The notes under the pieces are model-generated. The model saw nothing but the letters and a program-made list of their open reading frames with translations. It was not told the DNA's origin and did not search any database. This document shows positions 31,784 to 62,235 of a DNA stretch of 64,000 bases, one piece after another. The first letter of the stretch is position 1. Each line of letters opens with the position of its first letter. The stretch covers positions 2,301,001 to 2,365,000 of the forward strand of contig NZ_AP028031.1 in assembly GCF_030296915.1 (NCBI RefSeq), read 5' to 3'. The translations under genes and the position numbers were made by a program. The DNA is from Anaerostipes hadrus ATCC 29173 = JCM 17467. GTDB taxonomy: Bacteria > Bacillota > Clostridia > Lachnospirales > Lachnospiraceae.

Positions 31784-31905
31784 TACTTCATCGTGTATGC
31801 TTTGGATTGACCGAAATCATATCTACTCACAAGTTCTTGTACACTCCATAGTCGTAAATTCCCGAAATAGCCTTCGGTACATACCTACGTTTGCATTTAT
31901 TTATG
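31784..31905 (-). ncRNA. predicted omega RNA (reRNA) of TnpB 2
   Basis: The 3' non-coding block after the second tnpB resembles that of element 1 over about 100 nt. On the plus strand both contain CTACTCACAAGTTC, a TGTAC.CTCCATAG segment and a TATGCTTT block in the same order. This supports a conserved RNA scaffold rather than chance. The guide would come from beyond the right end of the element. Confidence 0.65.
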
Positions 31906-33064
31906 CAATTTCGTAAGTCGTAGCATCTCTCAAATTAAGTGCAGCATTGAAATCTCTATCTTCGCTATAACCACAATCACATTTGAAAATTCTATCTGAA
32001 AGTTTTAAATCTTTCTTGATTGCTCCGCAACAGTGACAGGTTTTAGATGATGGATACCATCTGTCTACAACTCGAAGTTCAATTCCGTTTTCATTGCATT
32101 TCGCCTGAAGCTTTATTCTGAATTCATAAAACTTCTGCGAAGCAACTGCCTTTGAAAGATGTTTGTTCTTCATCATTCCTGATATATTTAAATCTTCTAT
32201 CGTTATATAAGATGGTTTGGTTTTCACTATCTCTGCGATTGTTTTATTGATGTGATCCGTACGAATGTTATCAATTTTATGATGAAGTTTCTGTACTTTA
32301 AGCCTCTGTTTTTGTATATTTGCTTTTTGAGTAGATTCTCCTTTCTTTAAATTTTCATACTTTCGAGAAAGATTTTTCTGTTCTCGAATAAGTTGTTTTC
32401 CAAGTTTTTTTAATCTTACTGATCTATTAATGTTCTTATAAATTTTACCATTGGAAACAATGGCAAAATCCTTTATCCCTAGGTCGATACCAATTCCTTC
32501 ATTGAAACTATTAGCTATCTTGTTATTTGGAATTTCTACAAGAGCTGAAACATAGTATCTACCAGCTTTTATTGACACATGACCGCTTTTAATTACATAT
32601 CCATCTTTTGTTGTTGGAATATATCCTTTTTCTTTAATGCGAACCCAACCAAGTGATGGAATATTGATCCTGTGTCTTTGACAACGGCAATCTTTTGGAT
32701 TGTTCTTTACAAAATACATTTTCACATCAGATCTATTCTTCTTTTTGAATCTAGGGAAACTACTCTGATGTTTAAAAAATCTTATAAATGCGGCTTGTCC
32801 ATTATTTACTGCTTGTGTTACTGCTTTTGAATAAGCTTCCTTAATCCAAAAACATTCTGGATGCTTTGGAAGATACTCATTGTTAAGCCATACTCTAAAT
32901 TGGTTACTGCTCATAAACTTTTCGCCTTTATTATAAAGCTCTTTATTATGAGCAAGGTAGAAGTTGTAAATATATCTACAAGTTCCTATTGTTTTACGAA
33001 TTTTGGCTTTCTGCTCCTCTGTTGGATTTATTTCTGTCTTGAAGCTCTTTAGCAATTTCCTCAT
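31901..33064 (-). CDS. tnpB: TnpB RNA-guided nuclease of IS607 element 2
   Basis: 387 residues with intact catalytic sites: GIDLGIKDFAI, TIEDLNISG and EDRDFNAALNL, plus zinc-ribbon cysteines CHCCG ... CDCG. It shares the phrase GMMKNKHLSK with TnpB 1 but is clearly diverged overall. The start overlaps the end of the broken tnpA. The nuclease seems preserved although its recombinase is disrupted. Confidence 0.9.
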   Translation of the reverse strand: MRKLLKSFKTEINPTEEQKAKIRKTIGTCRYIYNFYLAHNKELYNKGEKFMSSNQFRVWLNNEYLPKHPECFWIKEAYSKAVTQAVNNGQAAFIRFFKHQSSFPRFKKKNRSDVKMYFVKNNPKDCRCQRHRINIPSLGWVRIKEKGYIPTTKDGYVIKSGHVSIKAGRYYVSALVEIPNNKIANSFNEGIGIDLGIKDFAIVSNGKIYKNINRSVRLKKLGKQLIREQKNLSRKYENLKKGESTQKANIQKQRLKVQKLHHKIDNIRTDHINKTIAEIVKTKPSYITIEDLNISGMMKNKHLSKAVASQKFYEFRIKLQAKCNENGIELRVVDRWYPSSKTCHCCGAIKKDLKLSDRIFKCDCGYSEDRDFNAALNLRDATTYEIA

Positions 33065-33665
33065 CCCTTTCTATTTGTTTTTTATACTTACGAAGCCCAT
33101 ACAGCCTACAAGAGAACACATGGAGTATTGAAACAATATCCTGCACAAGTTCTTCTTGTGGTGATAGTTCCTCATTGTTTACTACCACTATAGTCGTATT
33201 AAACTTCATACAGAATTTTTCAAACCAATCATAACTAAATCTAATAAATCTATCTTTATGGGTTACTATTATGGTTTTAATTTTTTGTTCCATTACTTCA
33301 TCTAATAATTTGTTCCACTTTTTACGGTTGTAATTAAGACCACTTCCATAATCTTCAATACACTGGTCTACAATAATTCCTTTTGCGTTACAAAACTGTC
33401 TTAAAAATGCAACTTGATTTAGTAAATCATCTTTTTGATTTCTTGTAGACACTCTAGCATAAATAACTACATGACGCTTATCATTTTCAGTATTTATACC
33501 TTTAAATTGTAGATACTGGTCATAAGTGTAATAGCGTCTATTAGTTGGAGTTCGGTTTGCTTTTAGAGTTCCTTCTCTGTCCTAACGTTGTAATGTCTTA
33601 ACAGATACACCTAAAAATTCAGCAAAATCTTTTGGCTTATAATTTGTGATATTTGATGTATTCAT
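32994..33665 (-). pseudogene. tnpA: IS607-family serine recombinase TnpA with amber stop at codon 28
   Basis: From ATG 33665 (AAAGGAG upstream) the frame reads an HTH (FAEFLGVSVKTLQR), then TAG at 33582-33584, then continues in frame as DREGTLKANR and the resolvase domain with YARVSTRNQKDD. The matching position in element 1 is Trp (LRNWDKKG), so a TGG to TAG change best explains it. Translation from an internal GTG near 33452 would give only the catalytic domain, without DNA-binding part. Confidence 0.9.
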
Positions 33666-41195: not shown

Positions 41196-41218
41196 TCAAT
41201 AGCACAACTAAATTCTGA
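41196..41218 (+). repeat. crossover site A
   Basis: Contains GCACAACTAAATTCTGA. Identical over 23 bp to site B in inverted orientation. The in-frame reading is SIAQLNSD, matching the fibre gene's crossover. Confidence 0.85.
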
Positions 41219-41543
41219 CTTAAATAACAGAATAGAATTTACAATTACTAGCATAGATTCAAAATATGCATTCACCGGAAACAGTTATAAACATAATGGA
41301 AAAGTATATATAAATGGATATTTCCATTGCAATTCTCCTAGTGTTGGGATTACAACTTGTTTTTTTGTTCCAGAAGGTTTTAGACCTAAAATAAAATGCG
41401 GATCGGCTTGCTATACCGATGATGATGTTAATTTTAATAATATTGGTGCTGTTAAAATTGACACAAATGGTGATATAACAATATATTTTCCTACAGTGTA
41501 CTCAACATGTGTATATACCTCCATAGTATATGATATAGATTAA
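41196..41543 (+). CDS. silent alternative tail-fibre C-terminus, cassette A
   Basis: Open from the crossover site to TAA at 41541-41543 but with no start codon or ribosome site. After SIAQLNS it encodes 108 residues, rich in aromatic and Gly residues, including FTGNSYKHNGKVYINGYF and FFVPEGFRPK, which resemble receptor-binding fibre tips. It is on the plus strand and would be expressed only after inversion joins it to the fibre gene start (43582-43709). Confidence 0.75.
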   Translation, partial: SIAQLNSDLNNRIEFTITSIDSKYAFTGNSYKHNGKVYINGYFHCNSPSVGITTCFFVPEGFRPKIKCGSACYTDDDVNFNNIGAVKIDTNGDITIYFPTVYSTCVYTSIVYDID

Positions 41544-41848
41544 TTTAATTTACGATAAATCATAAAATTAATCCTAACAACACCGTTTGTATCACTGGAT
41601 AATCCTATGTTTATATTTAAATTTGTATTATCCCATTGTAAAGCAGCACCTGTTACCAGACCTTGATACGCATTCCAATCACCGTTGCAAGCTGCTATAT
41701 ATAACTTTTCGTTATTTATGTCTGATATTTGCATGCCTAATGCTTTTGCAATTTCAGACTGACATCTTTGCCAGTAAATCATTTTGTTGCTTGTTCCAGA
41801 AAATACTTTTGATAAAAATGCTCTTTCAGAATTTAGTTGTGCTATTGA
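41540..41848 (-). CDS. silent alternative tail-fibre C-terminus, cassette B
   Basis: Reads SIAQLNS then 95 residues to TAA at 41540-41542 with no start at the crossover. The internal Met at 41782 is unlikely to be a true start. It ends AALQWDNTNLNINIGLSSD ... INFMIYRKLN. It faces the same way as the fibre gene but lies beyond the recombinase. Overlaps cassette A's stop by two bases, so the pair is a compact head-out unit. Confidence 0.75.
   Translation of the reverse strand, partial: SIAQLNSERAFLSKVFSGTSNKMIYWQRCQSEIAKALGMQISDINNEKLYIAACNGDWNAYQGLVTGAALQWDNTNLNINIGLSSDTNGVVRINFMIYRKLN
41826..41848 (-). repeat. crossover site B
   Basis: Inverted copy of site A, identical over 23 bp. Confidence 0.85.
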
Positions 41849-41980
41849 TATTTAATTTTTCATATTTTCTAAACAAATACATGGAGATCTGCTTCTAAAT
41901 TTAATTTTTTGCATAAAAATAAAATCTCCTTCCCTTTTAAGCAGATTTAATAGTTTATATATTAGATTGATTATTATTCT

Positions 41981-42976
41981 TTAAGCTGCATAACGAATAT
42001 ATTCATATTCAATCATATCGTCCGAAGCATCATAGTATGTACCGGCAGTCATATTAATGTCTGCATGACCTAACAAAATCGCAACATCCTGAAGCGGCAT
42101 GCCTCGCTTAATCAATTGCGTACATAACGTCCGTCGGAATTTATGCGGATGTGCATATACATTACATGATTTTCCTAAATCTCTTACAATTCGCTCGATT
42201 CCGTCTTTTCTTAATTGATCATATGGATGCCTCTTAGAAACAAAAAGTGAAATGTTATTATCTTGTCTGGCTTCTAAATATCTATTCAGATAAATCATTG
42301 CCTGATCTGATATAAACACCGTTCGCTCTTTATCTCCTTTACCAATGATCCGCACTTTCTTTCGAATAAAATCTATATCGTTTAGCTTTATACTGCTTAG
42401 TTCTGAGACACGACAACCTGTGGATGCTAACATCTCTATCAACGCCCGATCACGAATATCCTTACATGCTATACGCATACGTTCCATTTCATCAGCTGTA
42501 AACGCCTTCTTCTTTTTCTTTGTTACTTTGATTTTCTTAATTTTTCGAGTTGGATCTTTGTCAATGTACTCCTCATCAGCCAGCCAACTAAAAAACGAGG
42601 ATATCGCTGATTGCTTATTGTTTAATGATAAATTCGATATGCCTCTGCTTTGCTTATACGCATATAAAAATCCCCTAATATCGGTTGCATCTATGTCTTT
42701 TGCTTCTTTTCCAGTGAAATAATCTACAAACTGTGTTAGATGTAAATTATACTGTTCAATCGTTCTGTTGGATTTATTTTCTACAATCAGCGTTGCAAGG
42801 AACGTATCTTTTAGCTTCTTTAAACTGTCATTGTATTCCGTCAATTCCGTCGATTCTTTCTTAATCTGTACATCTCGGAACTCTTCTACCAGCACATTTT
42901 CAAGATAATCTAGCTCTTTTTTCTTGATTCTATTGCCCATTTTAATCAAAACATTGCTTATAATTCTGTCACGCAT
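41981..42976 (-). CDS. tyrosine recombinase within the fibre shufflon
   Basis: 331 residues from ATG 42976 (AAAGGAG upstream). N-terminal SAM-like core-binding domain (TIEQYNLHLTQFVDYF ... LNNKQSAISSFFSWL) and catalytic domain with Arg in STGCRVSELSS, Lys in GKGDKERTVFI, HPHKFRRTL (His-x-x-Arg), GHADI and the Tyr in AGTYYDAS. Likely carries out inversion at the A-D crossover sites. It could instead be the phage integrase, but its position between the inverted cassettes favours the shufflon role. Confidence 0.88.
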   Translation of the reverse strand: MRDRIISNVLIKMGNRIKKKELDYLENVLVEEFRDVQIKKESTELTEYNDSLKKLKDTFLATLIVENKSNRTIEQYNLHLTQFVDYFTGKEAKDIDATDIRGFLYAYKQSRGISNLSLNNKQSAISSFFSWLADEEYIDKDPTRKIKKIKVTKKKKKAFTADEMERMRIACKDIRDRALIEMLASTGCRVSELSSIKLNDIDFIRKKVRIIGKGDKERTVFISDQAMIYLNRYLEARQDNNISLFVSKRHPYDQLRKDGIERIVRDLGKSCNVYAHPHKFRRTLCTQLIKRGMPLQDVAILLGHADINMTAGTYYDASDDMIEYEYIRYAA

Positions 42977-43006
42977 AATACATTCTCCTTTGTGTGTTAT
43001 GTGTGC

Positions 43007-43050
43007 ATTATACTCTTTTCCGCTGCGGAGGATTCGTAGACTTCCGCAGC
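43007..43050 (-). promoter_or_regulatory. recombinase promoter region with hairpin next to site C
   Basis: Minus-strand -10 TATAAT at 43007-43012 about 30 bp before the start; no good -35. Just upstream an 8-bp inverted repeat GCTGCGGA / TCCGCAGC (43022-43029 and 43043-43050) overlaps crossover site C. It may regulate the recombinase or mark the site. Confidence 0.5.
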
Positions 43051-43060
43051 TAAATTCTGA
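43044..43060 (+). repeat. crossover site C
   Basis: CCGCAGCTAAATTCTGA; shares 16 of 17 bases with site D (inverted) and the last 11 bases (CTAAATTCTGA) with all four sites. Confidence 0.85.
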
Positions 43061-43298
43061 TACAAAAAGCATAATACAGTTTTTAGGCAATATGACCACA
43101 CCTAATAACTCAGAAGGTATCATTCATGCCAATTGGCCCGATAACATGGTGCCAGTAGCTATAAGAGTGAAAAAGTATGATCAATGGCGTTATAACGTAT
43201 TAGGCATGGCATTGTATGGAAAAGAATTATATTTGATAGAAATCCCTTCTGCATATCAAGGATGTCCTTGTGAAGTTATATGCTATAAGTCAAATTAA
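43044..43298 (+). CDS. silent alternative tail-fibre C-terminus, cassette C
   Basis: Reads PQLNSDTKSIIQFLGNMTTP and on to TAA at 43296-43298; 79 residues after the QLNS crossover, no start codon. Contains NWPDNMVPVAIRVKKYDQWR and two cysteines near the end. On the plus strand, tail to tail with the expressed fibre end. A C-D inversion would make it the expressed tip. Confidence 0.78.
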   Translation, partial: PQLNSDTKSIIQFLGNMTTPNNSEGIIHANWPDNMVPVAIRVKKYDQWRYNVLGMALYGKELYLIEIPSAYQGCPCEVICYKSN

Positions 43299-43304
43299 AA
43301 TATT

Positions 43305-43709
43305 TTAATTCCATAGGAAGTTTTCTTTGATCCATACAAGATCACAGCCAATTTTTTTGTTTTGTGGATAACTATTATTTGTCCATAACACATAACAATT
43401 CTCATTGTTAACTTCCTGAGATATTGCTTCAACACGTATATAACCAGTATCATATACATGCAATATCGCAGAACTCAAGCGATAACCTTGTTTACGATCA
43501 ACATAAAAATAGTTGTTTCCAGTACCATTCAATTCGGCATATTGAGTTACAAGTGCATCTTTTAAGTCAGAATTTAGCTGCGCAATATCATTCGCATTTG
43601 CTTTCATCTGCTTATCAATAATATCCATGTTATCATTCTGCACATCGACATCGTAGAAATCTGCTCCGTCCGGTTTTGTTAATCCGTAGTTCATTGTCTT
43701 TGTTGCCAT
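43305..43709 (-). CDS. phage tail fibre protein with switchable C-terminus
   Basis: 134 residues. Constant part 1-47 (MATKTMNYGLTKPDGADFYD ... DIAQLNS), with the phrase YGLTKPDGADFYDV typical of the N-terminus of Firmicutes tail-fibre proteins. The QLNS crossover lies at residues 44-47. The present variable part (48-134, cassette D) ends ENFLWN. AAAGGAG precedes the ATG at 43709. The last gene of the baseplate run, so it likely attaches to the baseplate. Confidence 0.82.
   Translation of the reverse strand: MATKTMNYGLTKPDGADFYDVDVQNDNMDIIDKQMKANANDIAQLNSDLKDALVTQYAELNGTGNNYFYVDRKQGYRLSSAILHVYDTGYIRVEAISQEVNNENCYVLWTNNSYPQNKKIGCDLVWIKENFLWN
43567..43583 (-). repeat. crossover site D (expression site)
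   Basis: GCGCAGCTAAATTCTGA on the minus strand, inside the fibre gene, encoding AQLNSD. Confidence 0.85.
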
Positions 43710-43711
43710 CT

Positions 43712-44248
43712 TTATTCTCCTTTCAGAACAGTATTTCTAACCTGTTCATGTGTATATTTTTTCAAATAATCGTGTGTAAATGCATGTAGTGTTTCGTGCT
43801 GGTTGTATCGCAGTCCTATATCCATCGTCATGTTCATCGGAACAATTTCATCCATTAACTTTTCAAAATCTGCATACATTTGTTTTCTGGTCAGTTCAAC
43901 CAGGCATTTTAGTTCCATTTCTTCTGGCAATACTACCAGTGTATAATTTCCATTGCCCAGTAGATTATTTAAGCGATTTAAGAGATCGTTGTATGTATAT
44001 GGATAATCGTCGTACCATTTTATTAGCACTCTAAATCTTCGATCTTCCAGGCTATCTGTATCCTGCGGCTGTATTTTTAGGATTTTTTCTCGTCTCGATA
44101 TTCCGTATTCGGTTGCTGTGCGAATACAAGTATCAAGATCTCTATCCCTTATTTCTTTTTCCAGGCGTTGCCCAACCTTTTCTTCTGCTGCATAAATTGC
44201 CATGATTTCATCTATGTTTTCTATTGCTGCCGGGATTTCTAACTGCAT
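43712..44248 (-). CDS. XkdU/YmfQ-like tail protein (DUF2313)
   Basis: 178 residues. Sequence IRDRDLDTCIRTATEYGISRREKILKI and RFRVLIKWYDDYPYTYNDLL match the DUF2313 baseplate family, which sits between baseplate J and fibre genes in Mu-like and PBSX-like phages. Ends with YTHEQVRNTVLKGE, a phrase related to the 55-residue protein at 39504. GGGGGC ribosome site. Confidence 0.83.
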   Translation of the reverse strand: MQLEIPAAIENIDEIMAIYAAEEKVGQRLEKEIRDRDLDTCIRTATEYGISRREKILKIQPQDTDSLEDRRFRVLIKWYDDYPYTYNDLLNRLNNLLGNGNYTLVVLPEEMELKCLVELTRKQMYADFEKLMDEIVPMNMTMDIGLRYNQHETLHAFTHDYLKKYTHEQVRNTVLKGE

Positions 44249-45297
44249 GACACCGCCCCCTTTATTGGTATTACATTTTCTTGCAACGTAATGTTTTCAG
44301 TACCGCCATTTATGAGTACGTTTGTTACGTCTGTAATTCCGTCAATATTGTATATCGCGTTTTCTATTGCTGCCCTTCTCACAATAATCGAAGTTGTATC
44401 AACCCATGTTTTTCGCAGTGATAACATATATTCTTCGATCGCATCTTCAATCTGCGTTTTCAAACCTTCTGCTGAGTATCCAGTATCGTAAGTCGCTACT
44501 GCTGATACATTTACTGTATACTCATTTACGGTTGATATGATCACATCATGACCTATCGGAGCAATTCCAATTCCTTCTCCATGATTTTGTACCGGATCTA
44601 CTTGCGTCTGTACTGAATCTATCAGCTCCTTCGATGCTTTTCTGTATTCATCTGATATGATAACAGTTGATATACTGCTGCCTTTTCTCCTGTATGTCTT
44701 TTCTCCACCAACTCCATCGATCGCTTCTACTTCTTCTTTGTAGTATGCTTTGTTTCCTGCAAACGGTTTAATTCCAAAAGAATCTTCTATTCGCATCCTG
44801 TAAGATTCTTCATCTTCTTCGTCTGTTCCTGGAACCAATAATTTCGTCAACTGTGCATCTTCTAACTCGTCGATGTCGTCCAGGCACATAAGATCTCCGG
44901 TCCATCCATTTGGTTCTGTTCCTGCATCTTCACATTCCAGTCTATACTTATGTTCTTCTTCATTGATCACATCTGTTACAATGTAGTTGTAATCATCTCC
45001 GCTGAATTCCGTTCCAATCGGTACAGTTGCATTAAATACACCTTCAAATTGTGCTGGTGTTGCTTCTTCTATGTACACACCTTTTTCTTGTCCGAATCTT
45101 ACCAAATGATCCAGATCAGCAGTGTCGCTGTACTGATTATCAACAAGTGCCGACAATTCTGTATATACTTCTTCCAGTCTTGCTCCGTGTTTTGCACATG
45201 AGTGATAAATTAGTGATCCCTCAGATGTATCCAATCCATCTGGCATTTCTTCCATCATTTCTTCCATGATCACATCCATTGTCATATCTTCATACAT
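44239..45297 (-). CDS. baseplate assembly protein J (XkdT-like)
   Basis: 352 residues. N-terminal MYEDMTMDVIMEEMMEEMP and DTSEGSLIYHSCAKHGARLEEVY, middle ALLVPGTDEEDEESYRMRI, and C-terminal GITDVTNVLINGG match baseplate J. It builds the wedge of contractile baseplates. Overlaps the XkdU gene by 10 nt. Confidence 0.9.
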   Translation of the reverse strand: MYEDMTMDVIMEEMMEEMPDGLDTSEGSLIYHSCAKHGARLEEVYTELSALVDNQYSDTADLDHLVRFGQEKGVYIEEATPAQFEGVFNATVPIGTEFSGDDYNYIVTDVINEEEHKYRLECEDAGTEPNGWTGDLMCLDDIDELEDAQLTKLLVPGTDEEDEESYRMRIEDSFGIKPFAGNKAYYKEEVEAIDGVGGEKTYRRKGSSISTVIISDEYRKASKELIDSVQTQVDPVQNHGEGIGIAPIGHDVIISTVNEYTVNVSAVATYDTGYSAEGLKTQIEDAIEEYMLSLRKTWVDTTSIIVRRAAIENAIYNIDGITDVTNVLINGGTENITLQENVIPIKGAVSCS

Positions 45298-60472: not shown

Positions 60473-60490
60473 TGTATCACTTCCTTCTAC

Positions 60491-60564
60491 TGGACCTCCA
60501 GGGACTCGAACCCTGGACCGATCGGTTATGAGCCGACTGCTCTGACCTACTGAGCTAGAGGTCC
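60491..60564 (-). tRNA. tRNA with CAU anticodon (Met or Ile2 type)
   Basis: 74 nt with full cloverleaf: acceptor GGACCTC / GAGGTCC, D-arm GCTC/GAGC, anticodon loop CTCATAA, and T-arm CAGGG TTCGAGT CCCTG. CCA is not encoded. The CTCATAA loop fits elongator Met or lysidine-modified Ile2; I cannot choose. It is on the late-gene strand between the half-S subunit and the HNH gene. Confidence 0.92.
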
Positions 60565-60568
60565 ATAA

Positions 60569-61006
60569 TTAAATCATCATCTTTTTCAGATACCATCTTT
60601 TCTGTTCTTTCTCTAATCGTATCTGTTCTTCTAATAGCTGTATCTCATCATTAACCATCCTCATATTATTAACCACATATCTCTGCACATCCTCGTTGTC
60701 ATGCCAATAAATTTGGAAGTGTTTTAATGTCCCAAATTGTAAATTGATTGTTGTCCTGTATCGTCTTAAGAAGTTTGGAAAACACCTCTCAATTGCAATA
60801 AACATATAATCAGTATTGATCTTATCTTTTGGTTCAAACACTGCATATCTTTGATCTATCAATCCTTTATCCTTAATTTGTCCAACACTTTCATCTACCG
60901 CACTCAGCTTTATAAAGCAAGTACCTGCTTTATACTCTTTCCCAGATACTGCACGTTCTACATTACATATGTCATAAATATTTATTTTTCTTGTATTTAA
61001 ATTCAT
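60569..61006 (-). CDS. half-size HsdS-like DNA specificity subunit
   Basis: 145 residues: one target-recognition-like domain, then a C-terminal helix (NDEIQLLEEQIRLEKEQKRWYLKKMMI) as in type I S subunits. The start overlaps the end of the methylase gene by four bases. A half subunit would work as a dimer, giving a palindromic or two-fold target. Confidence 0.75.
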   Translation of the reverse strand: MNLNTRKINIYDICNVERAVSGKEYKAGTCFIKLSAVDESVGQIKDKGLIDQRYAVFEPKDKINTDYMFIAIERCFPNFLRRYRTTINLQFGTLKHFQIYWHDNEDVQRYVVNNMRMVNDEIQLLEEQIRLEKEQKRWYLKKMMI

Positions 61007-62235
61007 AACAATCCCTCAAATGATAACTGTCCAATTACTTCTTTTGCTGGTTTCTTTGGTTTTAATATGTTTTTATGCATCTCTACAACTTCCATATCTT
61101 CCTTACTTTCTGTCAAATCATTCAACATGCTATACAGATCGGCTTTTATTTTTGTTTCTTCTTCATCTATTTGTTTCAGATCTTTCAAAATCTGTCTAAC
61201 ATCCGGAAGTGGTTCTTCTTCAAATGTGTCTACATATCTTGGGATATTTAGGTTAAAATCATTCTCTTCAATCTCTTCATAGCTTGCAATGTATGAATAT
61301 TTTTCAACCTCTTTCCTGTTTAAAAATGTATTCACTACTTTTTCGATATGTTTTTCTTCCATATCGTTTTGTGCTGCTTTCTTTATAAATTCTTTTGATG
61401 CGTCTATAAAAAGCACATCTTTTGAATTATGTTCAATCACTAGCAAAAAAACTGGAATCGAAGTATTCAAGAACAATTTATCAGGAACTCCGATCACTGC
61501 GCTGATCATATGGTTTTCAATTAACCATCTTCTTATCTTTCCTTCCTGTGCTCCTCTAAATAATATTCCATGTGGCAGCACTGCAATCTGCCTTCCATCT
61601 TCCTTTAGATGTTGCACACCTCTTAATATAAAGCCAAAATCTGCTTTGCTCTTTGGAATCTTCCAGCCTAATATTTCATAATCGTCTGTATCCGGAAACT
61701 TCATTGAATATGGCGGATTCATAATAATGTTTTTATATTGATCTGGATTCTGTCTTTCTACCTGTCTTGGTATTGATATTTCTCCGCACTGTTCAAGCGC
61801 ATAGCTTTCAAATATCTGTGATCTTAAGCAATCAGCTCTACTAATCATTCCGGTCATTCCATTTACACATGCATCCAATAACGCAAACGGAATTGTTCTT
61901 TCCGAATATTCGTATTCGTTGATTTTTATTCCTCTTGTTTTATTCGCCCATTTACTCAATGCTCCTGTGCCTGAACACATGTCAATATTGTCTCCATCTT
62001 TCATAATTTCGGCTACAATCTGGCATATGCAATCTGGTGTGAAATCCTGTTTAAGATTTTTTCTATCTCCTTGCTCTTCCTGGAAGATGTCCCGAATTTC
62101 TGTATATCCTTCATCTTTAACTTCTTGTATCTTATCTGCTGCCTGATCAGATAGCAGATATTCCAATATTTTATCCGACAGTTTATAGCTTTCTTTTACT
62201 CCAAATATCTCTAACAGACTTTTTCTATCTTCCAT
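61003..62235 (-). CDS. phage-encoded N6-adenine DNA methylase (HsdM-like)
   Basis: 410 residues. TPDCICQIVAEIM, motif I DMCSGTGALS and motif IV IIMNPPYSM identify an adenine-N6 methylase of type I M subunit form. No restriction subunit is nearby, so it probably protects phage DNA or alters host epigenetics. Overlaps the half-S gene. A partial promoter-like region lies upstream at about 62320-62350. Confidence 0.9.
   Translation of the reverse strand: MEDRKSLLEIFGVKESYKLSDKILEYLLSDQAADKIQEVKDEGYTEIRDIFQEEQGDRKNLKQDFTPDCICQIVAEIMKDGDNIDMCSGTGALSKWANKTRGIKINEYEYSERTIPFALLDACVNGMTGMISRADCLRSQIFESYALEQCGEISIPRQVERQNPDQYKNIIMNPPYSMKFPDTDDYEILGWKIPKSKADFGFILRGVQHLKEDGRQIAVLPHGILFRGAQEGKIRRWLIENHMISAVIGVPDKLFLNTSIPVFLLVIEHNSKDVLFIDASKEFIKKAAQNDMEEKHIEKVVNTFLNRKEVEKYSYIASYEEIEENDFNLNIPRYVDTFEEEPLPDVRQILKDLKQIDEEETKIKADLYSMLNDLTESKEDMEVVEMHKNILKPKKPAKEVIGQLSFEGLL

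What the first reader, a model, noticed from the sequence alone, without database searches (positions are those of the whole stretch)
41196..43709. Compact phage tail-fibre shufflon: one expressed and three silent C-terminal cassettes around a tyrosine recombinase
Seen directly: four copies of a site with the common core CTAAATTCTGA, in alternating orientation A(+), B(-), C(+), D(-). A and B are identical over 23 bp; C and D differ by one base over 17. Site D lies inside the fibre gene. At each of the other sites the reading frame after Gln-Leu-Asn-Ser is open (108, 95 and 79 residues for A, B and C) and ends in a stop, but has no start codon. A and B, and C and D, are tail to tail. Known: R64-type shufflons switch pilus tips with a tyrosine recombinase in a similar layout. 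Inference: this phage switches its receptor-binding tip among four versions. I do not know whether this exact family has been described.
Basis: partly seen in the sequence, partly recalled or inferred. Interest (0 to 1): 0.95.

Follow-up and report, generated by a model that had tools for sequence, protein, structure and literature searches.

The report
Four-tip phage tail-fibre switch
A gut-type prophage carries a DNA-flipping switch that can put any of four different tips on its tail fibre, and related prophages hold the same tips in other arrangements, so the switch does move in nature and tips may be traded between phages.

Summary
Four copies of an 11-bp core, in alternating orientation, bound two segments, each with two tail-to-tail fibre C-terminal cassettes; a third segment between them holds a tyrosine recombinase. 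One cassette is fused to a short fibre N-terminus in a contractile-tailed prophage.

Natural variants support inversion. Two IMG/VR contigs are identical over 4111 bp up to the end of the core and then carry cassette A or B. A second, remnant prophage in the same chromosome has the same four cassettes rearranged; core to core the pairs differ by 0 of 627 and 0 of 526 bases, whereas flanks are 80-90% alike or unrelated. Pair A/B sits in three phage backbones with 0-1 differences and none of the flanks. All 26 cassettes are open; dN/dS is 0.05-0.21.

Recombinase relatives occur in the same four-site layout at other tail loci and at hsdS (type I restriction) loci: 19 of 40 loci pass a strict test, 0 of 480 shuffles.

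Closest known: Rin (Bifidobacterium, Eggerthella phages), from which the layout differs. Exchange of tips between phages is the newest, unproven element. No reads were available.

The parts
43305..43709 (-). expressed tail fibre gene (134 aa): constant N-terminus (43578-43709) joined at site D to cassette D
   Evidence: ORF; follows gp48-like 43712-44248 and baseplate J 44239-45297; PHROG 37900, unknown function, residues 1-51
43567..43577 (-). site D (core CTAAATTCTGA), inside the fibre gene
43050..43060 (+). site C
41826..41836 (-). site B (23-bp match to A: 41826-41848)
41208..41218 (+). site A (23-bp match to B: 41196-41218)
43305..43580 (-). cassette D with QLNS (91 aa), expressed
43047..43298 (+). 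cassette C with QLNS (83 aa), silent
41540..41839 (-). cassette B with QLNS (99 aa), silent
41205..41543 (+). cassette A with QLNS (112 aa), silent
41981..42976 (-). tyrosine recombinase (331 aa), XerC/XerD-like
   Evidence: PF00589 E 1.6e-37 with SAM-like N-terminal domain; PDB Xer proteins to E 1.8e-31
43023..43049 (-). dyad CTGCGGA-N13-TCCGCAG between site C and the recombinase start; role unknown
   Evidence: sequence; RNA fold z -1.9, 8 of 200 shuffles as good; the dyad is also present in L012, where the loop differs

Best explanation
This is a four-site DNA-inversion array (shufflon), worked by its own tyrosine recombinase, that chooses the C-terminal tip of a phage tail fibre. The sites alternate in direction, so recombination between neighbouring or outermost sites inverts a cassette pair, the recombinase segment or the whole array. 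Inversions alone reach 16 arrangements and all four expressed proteins and always leave the recombinase in the middle. Shown: the anatomy; open cassettes kept under purifying selection; natural variants that differ exactly at the sites. Inferred: that this recombinase catalyses it, that it happens in growing lysogens or during phage growth, and that the tips decide to which cells the phage adsorbs.
For: L087 and L008: 4111 of 4111 bp identical up to the end of the core, then cassette A or B, and the last 60 bp of L087 match the other end of the pair in L008 in inverted orientation. L020 in the same chromosome: same four cassettes, other arrangement, identity breaking at the core at all 4 borders; pairs differ by 0 of 627 and 0 of 526 bases. 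L010 and L011: pairs in swapped positions. L081 and L083 in genome G080: distal segment inverted, 98.8%. 26 cassettes in 7 loci, 9 types, all open; dN/dS 0.05-0.21 in 14 comparisons, several of which share a sequence. Four-site layout around relatives of the recombinase in 13 of 33 distant loci, 0 of 480 shuffles.
Against: No reads and no bench work. L087 ends 44 bases past the core, so only one junction is seen there. The recombinase segment has one orientation in 7 of 7 close loci although its flip is allowed; it is reversed in 1 of 7 distant tail loci, L070. The cassettes and the window's fibre have no informative domain hit, and no usable structure was obtained.
Confidence: 0.92

Rival explanations
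1. Besides flipping within one phage, the recombinase swaps cassette pairs between different phages in one cell: a pair flanked by two inverted sites is exchanged by a double crossover, a natural form of recombinase-mediated cassette exchange. This adds to the best explanation and does not contradict it.
For: Pair A/B occurs in three backbones (I: window, L011; II: L020, L010; III: L008) with 0, 0, 0 and 1 differences over 627 bp to the L020 copy. The constant part and the flanks of sites 3 and 4 stay backbone-specific in 6 of 6 loci. Two prophages in one chromosome share both pairs.
Against: The recombinase gene is a mosaic with breakpoints inside it, so ordinary homologous recombination also acts here; it could import a pair, with later inversions hiding the path. 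Pair partners change over longer times (A' with C' in L012, D' with E in L008), which neither inversion nor exchange at the sites explains. No exchange was observed directly.
Confidence: 0.48
2. Homologous recombination between prophages and later decay made a static collection of fibre ends; the sites are only conserved coding sequence for Gln-Leu-Asn-Ser.
For: The core encodes QLNS in the fibre; the recombinase gene shows mosaic exchange; L020 is a remnant prophage.
Against: The core is conserved also where it is not read as fibre, in front of silent cassettes in both orientations; the L087/L008 junction is an inversion; silent cassettes are under purifying selection; the same layout surrounds related recombinases at hsdS loci.
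Confidence: 0.05
3. The arrangements differ because of assembly errors: identical cassettes present twice in a genome let the assembler join the wrong ends.
For: Identical cassettes occur twice in this genome, and contigs L009, L012 and L087 end in or near an array.
Against: The window's genome is a single contig. L081 and L083, in another single-contig genome (G080), repeat the pattern with a different core and other cassettes. A misjoin would not explain silent open cassettes under selection.
Confidence: 0.04

Closest known systems
Rin system of bifidobacterial prophages (PMC6109161; abstract and passages read) and of Eggerthella lenta prophages (PMC8778435; abstract and passages read)
   Same: Phage receptor-binding/tail protein with constant N-terminus and exchangeable C-termini; short repeated crossover sites (11 bp and 8 bp there); a tyrosine recombinase beside the array, not the integrase; other arrangements in related prophages.
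   Different: There the cassettes are described as tandemly oriented with the recombinase flanking them; here two tail-to-tail pairs lie on either side of a central recombinase and all four sites alternate. Other host group, other site sequence. Homology of the two recombinases was not tested.
Shufflon of plasmid R64 (features recalled; cited in PMC5903667)
   Same: Segments with two back-to-back C-terminal cassettes bounded by short inverted sites; tyrosine recombinase.
   Different: Acts on the pilus tip PilV, recombinase outside the segments (recalled); here a phage fibre and the recombinase inside the array.
Inverting type I restriction loci (hsdS), such as pneumococcal ivr and tvr (PMC6265443 passages read; PMC4948785 seen in a listing only)
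   Same: Relatives of this recombinase sit in the same four-site layout beside hsdM/hsdS.
   Different: Target is DNA-recognition specificity of a restriction enzyme; in the tree these loci form a supported branch without tail loci.
Gin of Mu, Cin of P1, Min of p15B (named in PMC6109161)
   Same: Switching of phage tail-fibre C-termini by inversion.
   Different: Serine recombinases; this is a tyrosine recombinase.

Membership tests
Rin-type phage shufflon | tyrosine recombinase with core-binding and catalytic domains, no arm-type domain | tested here: met
   PF00589 plus SAM-like domains, no arm-type hit; nearest solved structures are Xer proteins. About 57 N-terminal residues are unassigned.
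Rin-type phage shufflon | short repeated sites, one inside the fibre gene and one before each spare C-terminus | tested here: met
Rin-type phage shufflon | spare cassettes in tandem with the recombinase at one side of the array | tested here: not met
   alternating cassettes, recombinase in the centre
Rin-type phage shufflon | other arrangements in related prophages | tested here: met
Rin-type phage shufflon | recombinase homologous to Rin as a group | not tested
Rin-type phage shufflon | mixed arrangements within one culture or virion pool | not testable with these tools
   no reads available
R64 shufflon | two back-to-back cassettes per inverted-site segment | tested here: met
R64 shufflon | acts on a pilus tip gene (pilV) | tested here: not met
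   phage tail genes around it
Gin/Cin/Min inversion systems | serine recombinase | tested here: not met
   PF00589 tyrosine recombinase
hsdS inversion loci | hsdM/hsdS as target of the array | tested here: not met
   the array lies among tail genes; hsdM/hsdS only in other loci of the recombinase family

The most novel reading that the evidence does not exclude
The array is a natural cassette-exchange hub: phages of unrelated backbone that share a host group draw on a common pool of tail-tip pairs and trade them site to site, without flanking DNA, whenever two of them share a cell; even a tail-only prophage remnant serves as a bank of tips.
Probability: 0.48. Interest if true: 0.82.

Novelty: new variant of a known kind. 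Interest (0 to 1): 0.62.

Why it matters
It extends tyrosine-recombinase tail-fibre switching, reported in phages of two actinobacterial genera, to another bacterial group, with a compact symmetric design that recurs around related recombinases. It ties phage receptor choice and bacterial restriction specificity (hsdS) to one recombinase family with one layout. If pairs are traded between phages at the sites, what a phage can adsorb to would depend on which other prophages its host carries, which can be tested in strain collections and metagenomes.

Tried and rejected
Structure: an expressed fibre (L010) was predicted from its single sequence; the model is unusable (mean pLDDT 32.9) and no fold search was run. 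A PDB sequence search of the same fibre gave one weak, irrelevant hit (E 0.0085). Single cassettes: best PHROG hit E 0.0017, unknown function; best Pfam hit E 0.0067, a phage DUF below its cut-off; two cassettes of relatives without a hit.

Rejected readings: a static set of fibre remnants; the recombinase as the prophage integrase (central place, same layout at hsdS loci); serine-recombinase inversion. I first thought the recombinase segment too is swapped exactly at the sites; one search shows breakpoints inside its gene, so I dropped that.

Rows outside the count of 19 of 40: L026 and L079 have four looser copies and L068 five in another layout; L067 has three and is cut by a contig end; L029 has three; L009 is cut after the recombinase. 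The zones of the strict test were set after I had seen the site positions, and some positives are near-copies (L060, L078 and L082; L081 and L083), so the count is not of independent events. L067 was put with the tail loci in the tree, but its fibre-like gene has no PHROG hit; I leave it unassigned.

Other dead ends: the genome-contig scan found one remote integrase; DNA search of phage records found no match to the array; none of the 10 other genomes of the genus has pair A/B.

Full report
WHAT IS THERE. The window lies at 2301001-2365000 of a 2.80-Mb, single-contig genome. The array sits in a contractile-tailed prophage: terminase, portal, protease, capsid, sheath, tube, tape measure, baseplate J and gp48-like genes precede it, an Ig-like protein, holin and endolysin follow. 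In the direction of the phage genes (minus strand) the order is: constant fibre N-terminus (44 codons), site D, cassette D; cassette C reversed, site C; recombinase; site B, cassette B; cassette A reversed, site A; Ig gene. The core occurs exactly four times in the window and 12 times in the genome, 8 of them in this array and a second one. In L009 and L011 the constant part has T as first base of the core, where the cassettes' other sites have C; so, by inference, the exchange falls within TAAATTCTGA.

NATURAL REARRANGEMENTS. (1) Same chromosome: L020 has a second array with the same four cassettes, constant-A><B-recombinase-C><D, against constant-D><C-recombinase-B><A in the window. BLAST gives 531 of 531 and 631 of 632 for the pairs, 89.8% for the recombinase segment and 80.7% for the Ig region; core to core the differences are 0 of 627 and 0 of 526. 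Identity stops at the core at all four borders. (2) L087 and L008, two IMG/VR contigs with the same backbone: 4111 of 4111 bp identical up to the end of the core, then A in L087 and B in L008; the last 60 bp of L087 match the other end of the pair in L008, inverted, 60 of 60. L087 ends there. (3) L010 and L011 carry pairs A/B (99.84%) and E/F (93.5%) in swapped positions. (4) In G080, two prophages (L081, L083) have the distal segment inverted at 98.8%, with the recombinase segment at 97.5% and the DNA beyond at 84.9%. Treating the array as three segments and four alternating sites, inversion alone reaches 16 arrangements and four expressed ends and never moves the recombinase from the centre.

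SELECTION. The 7 close loci (window, L020, L008-L012) hold 26 cassettes of 9 types, all open for 83-113 residues. The 14 comparisons with more than 8 differences give dN/dS of 0.05-0.21; several share a sequence, so they are not 14 independent tests. Cassettes that are silent where found are among them, so they must be expressed often enough to be kept.

EXCHANGE BETWEEN PHAGES. By constant part and by the flanks of sites 3 and 4, the 6 complete close loci form three backbones: I (window, L011), II (L020, L010, L012), III (L008); flanks agree within each, 6 of 6. Pair A/B is found in 5 of the 6, in all three backbones, with 0, 0, 0 and 1 differences over 627 bp to the L020 copy; L012 has a diverged A' paired with C'. 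Against a simple picture: the recombinase gene is a mosaic with internal breakpoints, and pair partners change over longer times. I rate exchange at the sites at about even odds. L020 is a remnant, tail-tip and lysis genes between integrase-like fragments (fragments judged from the translations), yet its array is whole.

RECOMBINASE FAMILY. In relatives, 6 of 61 genomes match at E <= 1e-50, and 21 of 397 family genomes at E <= 1e-60, the own genome included in both. I examined 33 distant loci (8, 5 phage records) and the 7 close ones; they were chosen by recombinase score and are not a random sample. The strict four-site test is passed by 13 of 33 and 6 of 7, and by 0 of 480 shuffles. The 13 are 7 tail loci (L064, L069, L070, L071, L076, L081, L083) and 6 hsdS loci (L060, L061, L074, L078, L080, L082; L061 by a weak hsdS hit only). 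For L071 and L083 the constant part matches only PHROGs of unknown function, and the assignment rests on neighbours. The constant part lies on the 5' side of the recombinase in 7 of 7 close and 6 of 7 distant tail loci, on the 3' side in L070. In the tree the hsdS loci fall in one supported branch of 16 rows without tail loci; the window clade is a long branch whose place is unsure. Motifs of the catalytic residues are kept in 39 or 40 of 40 sequences at R189, K213, H278, R281, H304 and Y314 of the window protein (their roles recalled).

PRECEDENTS. [quoted passage not shown] E. lenta has a similar locus (PMC8778435, abstract and passages). A survey (PMC5903667, passages) reports inversions in prophage regions, particularly tail fibres, of 4 Proteobacteria species. 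PMC2647930 (passages) notes an Rci-like integrase in a Pseudomonas prophage; the passages describe no fibre shufflon. The tvr locus (PMC6265443, abstract and passages) shuffles hsdS parts through circles and has an attenuator before its recombinase, which the dyad here may resemble; that is only suggestive. Nine searches for a phage shufflon or fibre inversion by tyrosine recombinase, including terms for Lachnospiraceae, Clostridia, Firmicutes, Anaerostipes and cassette exchange, listed no paper on such an array outside the two actinobacterial genera; most subscription papers and preprints are not held.

VERDICT. A real and very probably working tail-fibre shufflon, a new variant of a known kind, with good evidence for inversion in nature and suggestive evidence for exchange of tips between phages.

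Noticed in passing
L020 3038-13180: Second prophage of the same chromosome is a remnant with baseplate, fibre, array and lysis genes only, between integrase-like fragments; it keeps a whole cassette array.
   Followed up: partly
window 60569-62235: An N6 DNA methylase (PF02384) with a short neighbour that looks like half an HsdS, inside the phage beside the terminase region.
   Followed up: no
window 60490-60565: tRNA-Met gene within the prophage region.
   Followed up: no
window 43023-43049; L012 same place: Dyad between the recombinase-side site and the recombinase start, with a TATAAT-like hexamer at 43012-43007; the dyad is kept in L012 with another loop. Could be an attenuator or operator.
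   Followed up: partly
6 complete close loci, sites 3 and 4: About 12 bases before the core agree between the two distal sites of each locus but differ between backbones; unexplained, perhaps part of the recombination site.
   Followed up: partly
L059 5986-6981 (Terrisporobacter phage TPELB_ph1, PP197244.1): A relative of the recombinase, annotated integrase, between a long hypothetical gene after the tail genes and the holin, while the phage has a second integrase gene; no four-site array by the strict test.
   Followed up: partly
L029, L030, L031 (three loci of genome G023): Recombinase relatives with fibre-like C-termini and another repeated motif (around GCACTTAGGGCTTG); three copies around L029, perhaps a three-site variant.
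   Followed up: partly
window 31901-33452: Adjacent ORFs that look by eye like TnpB and a serine recombinase of an IS607-like element.
   Followed up: no
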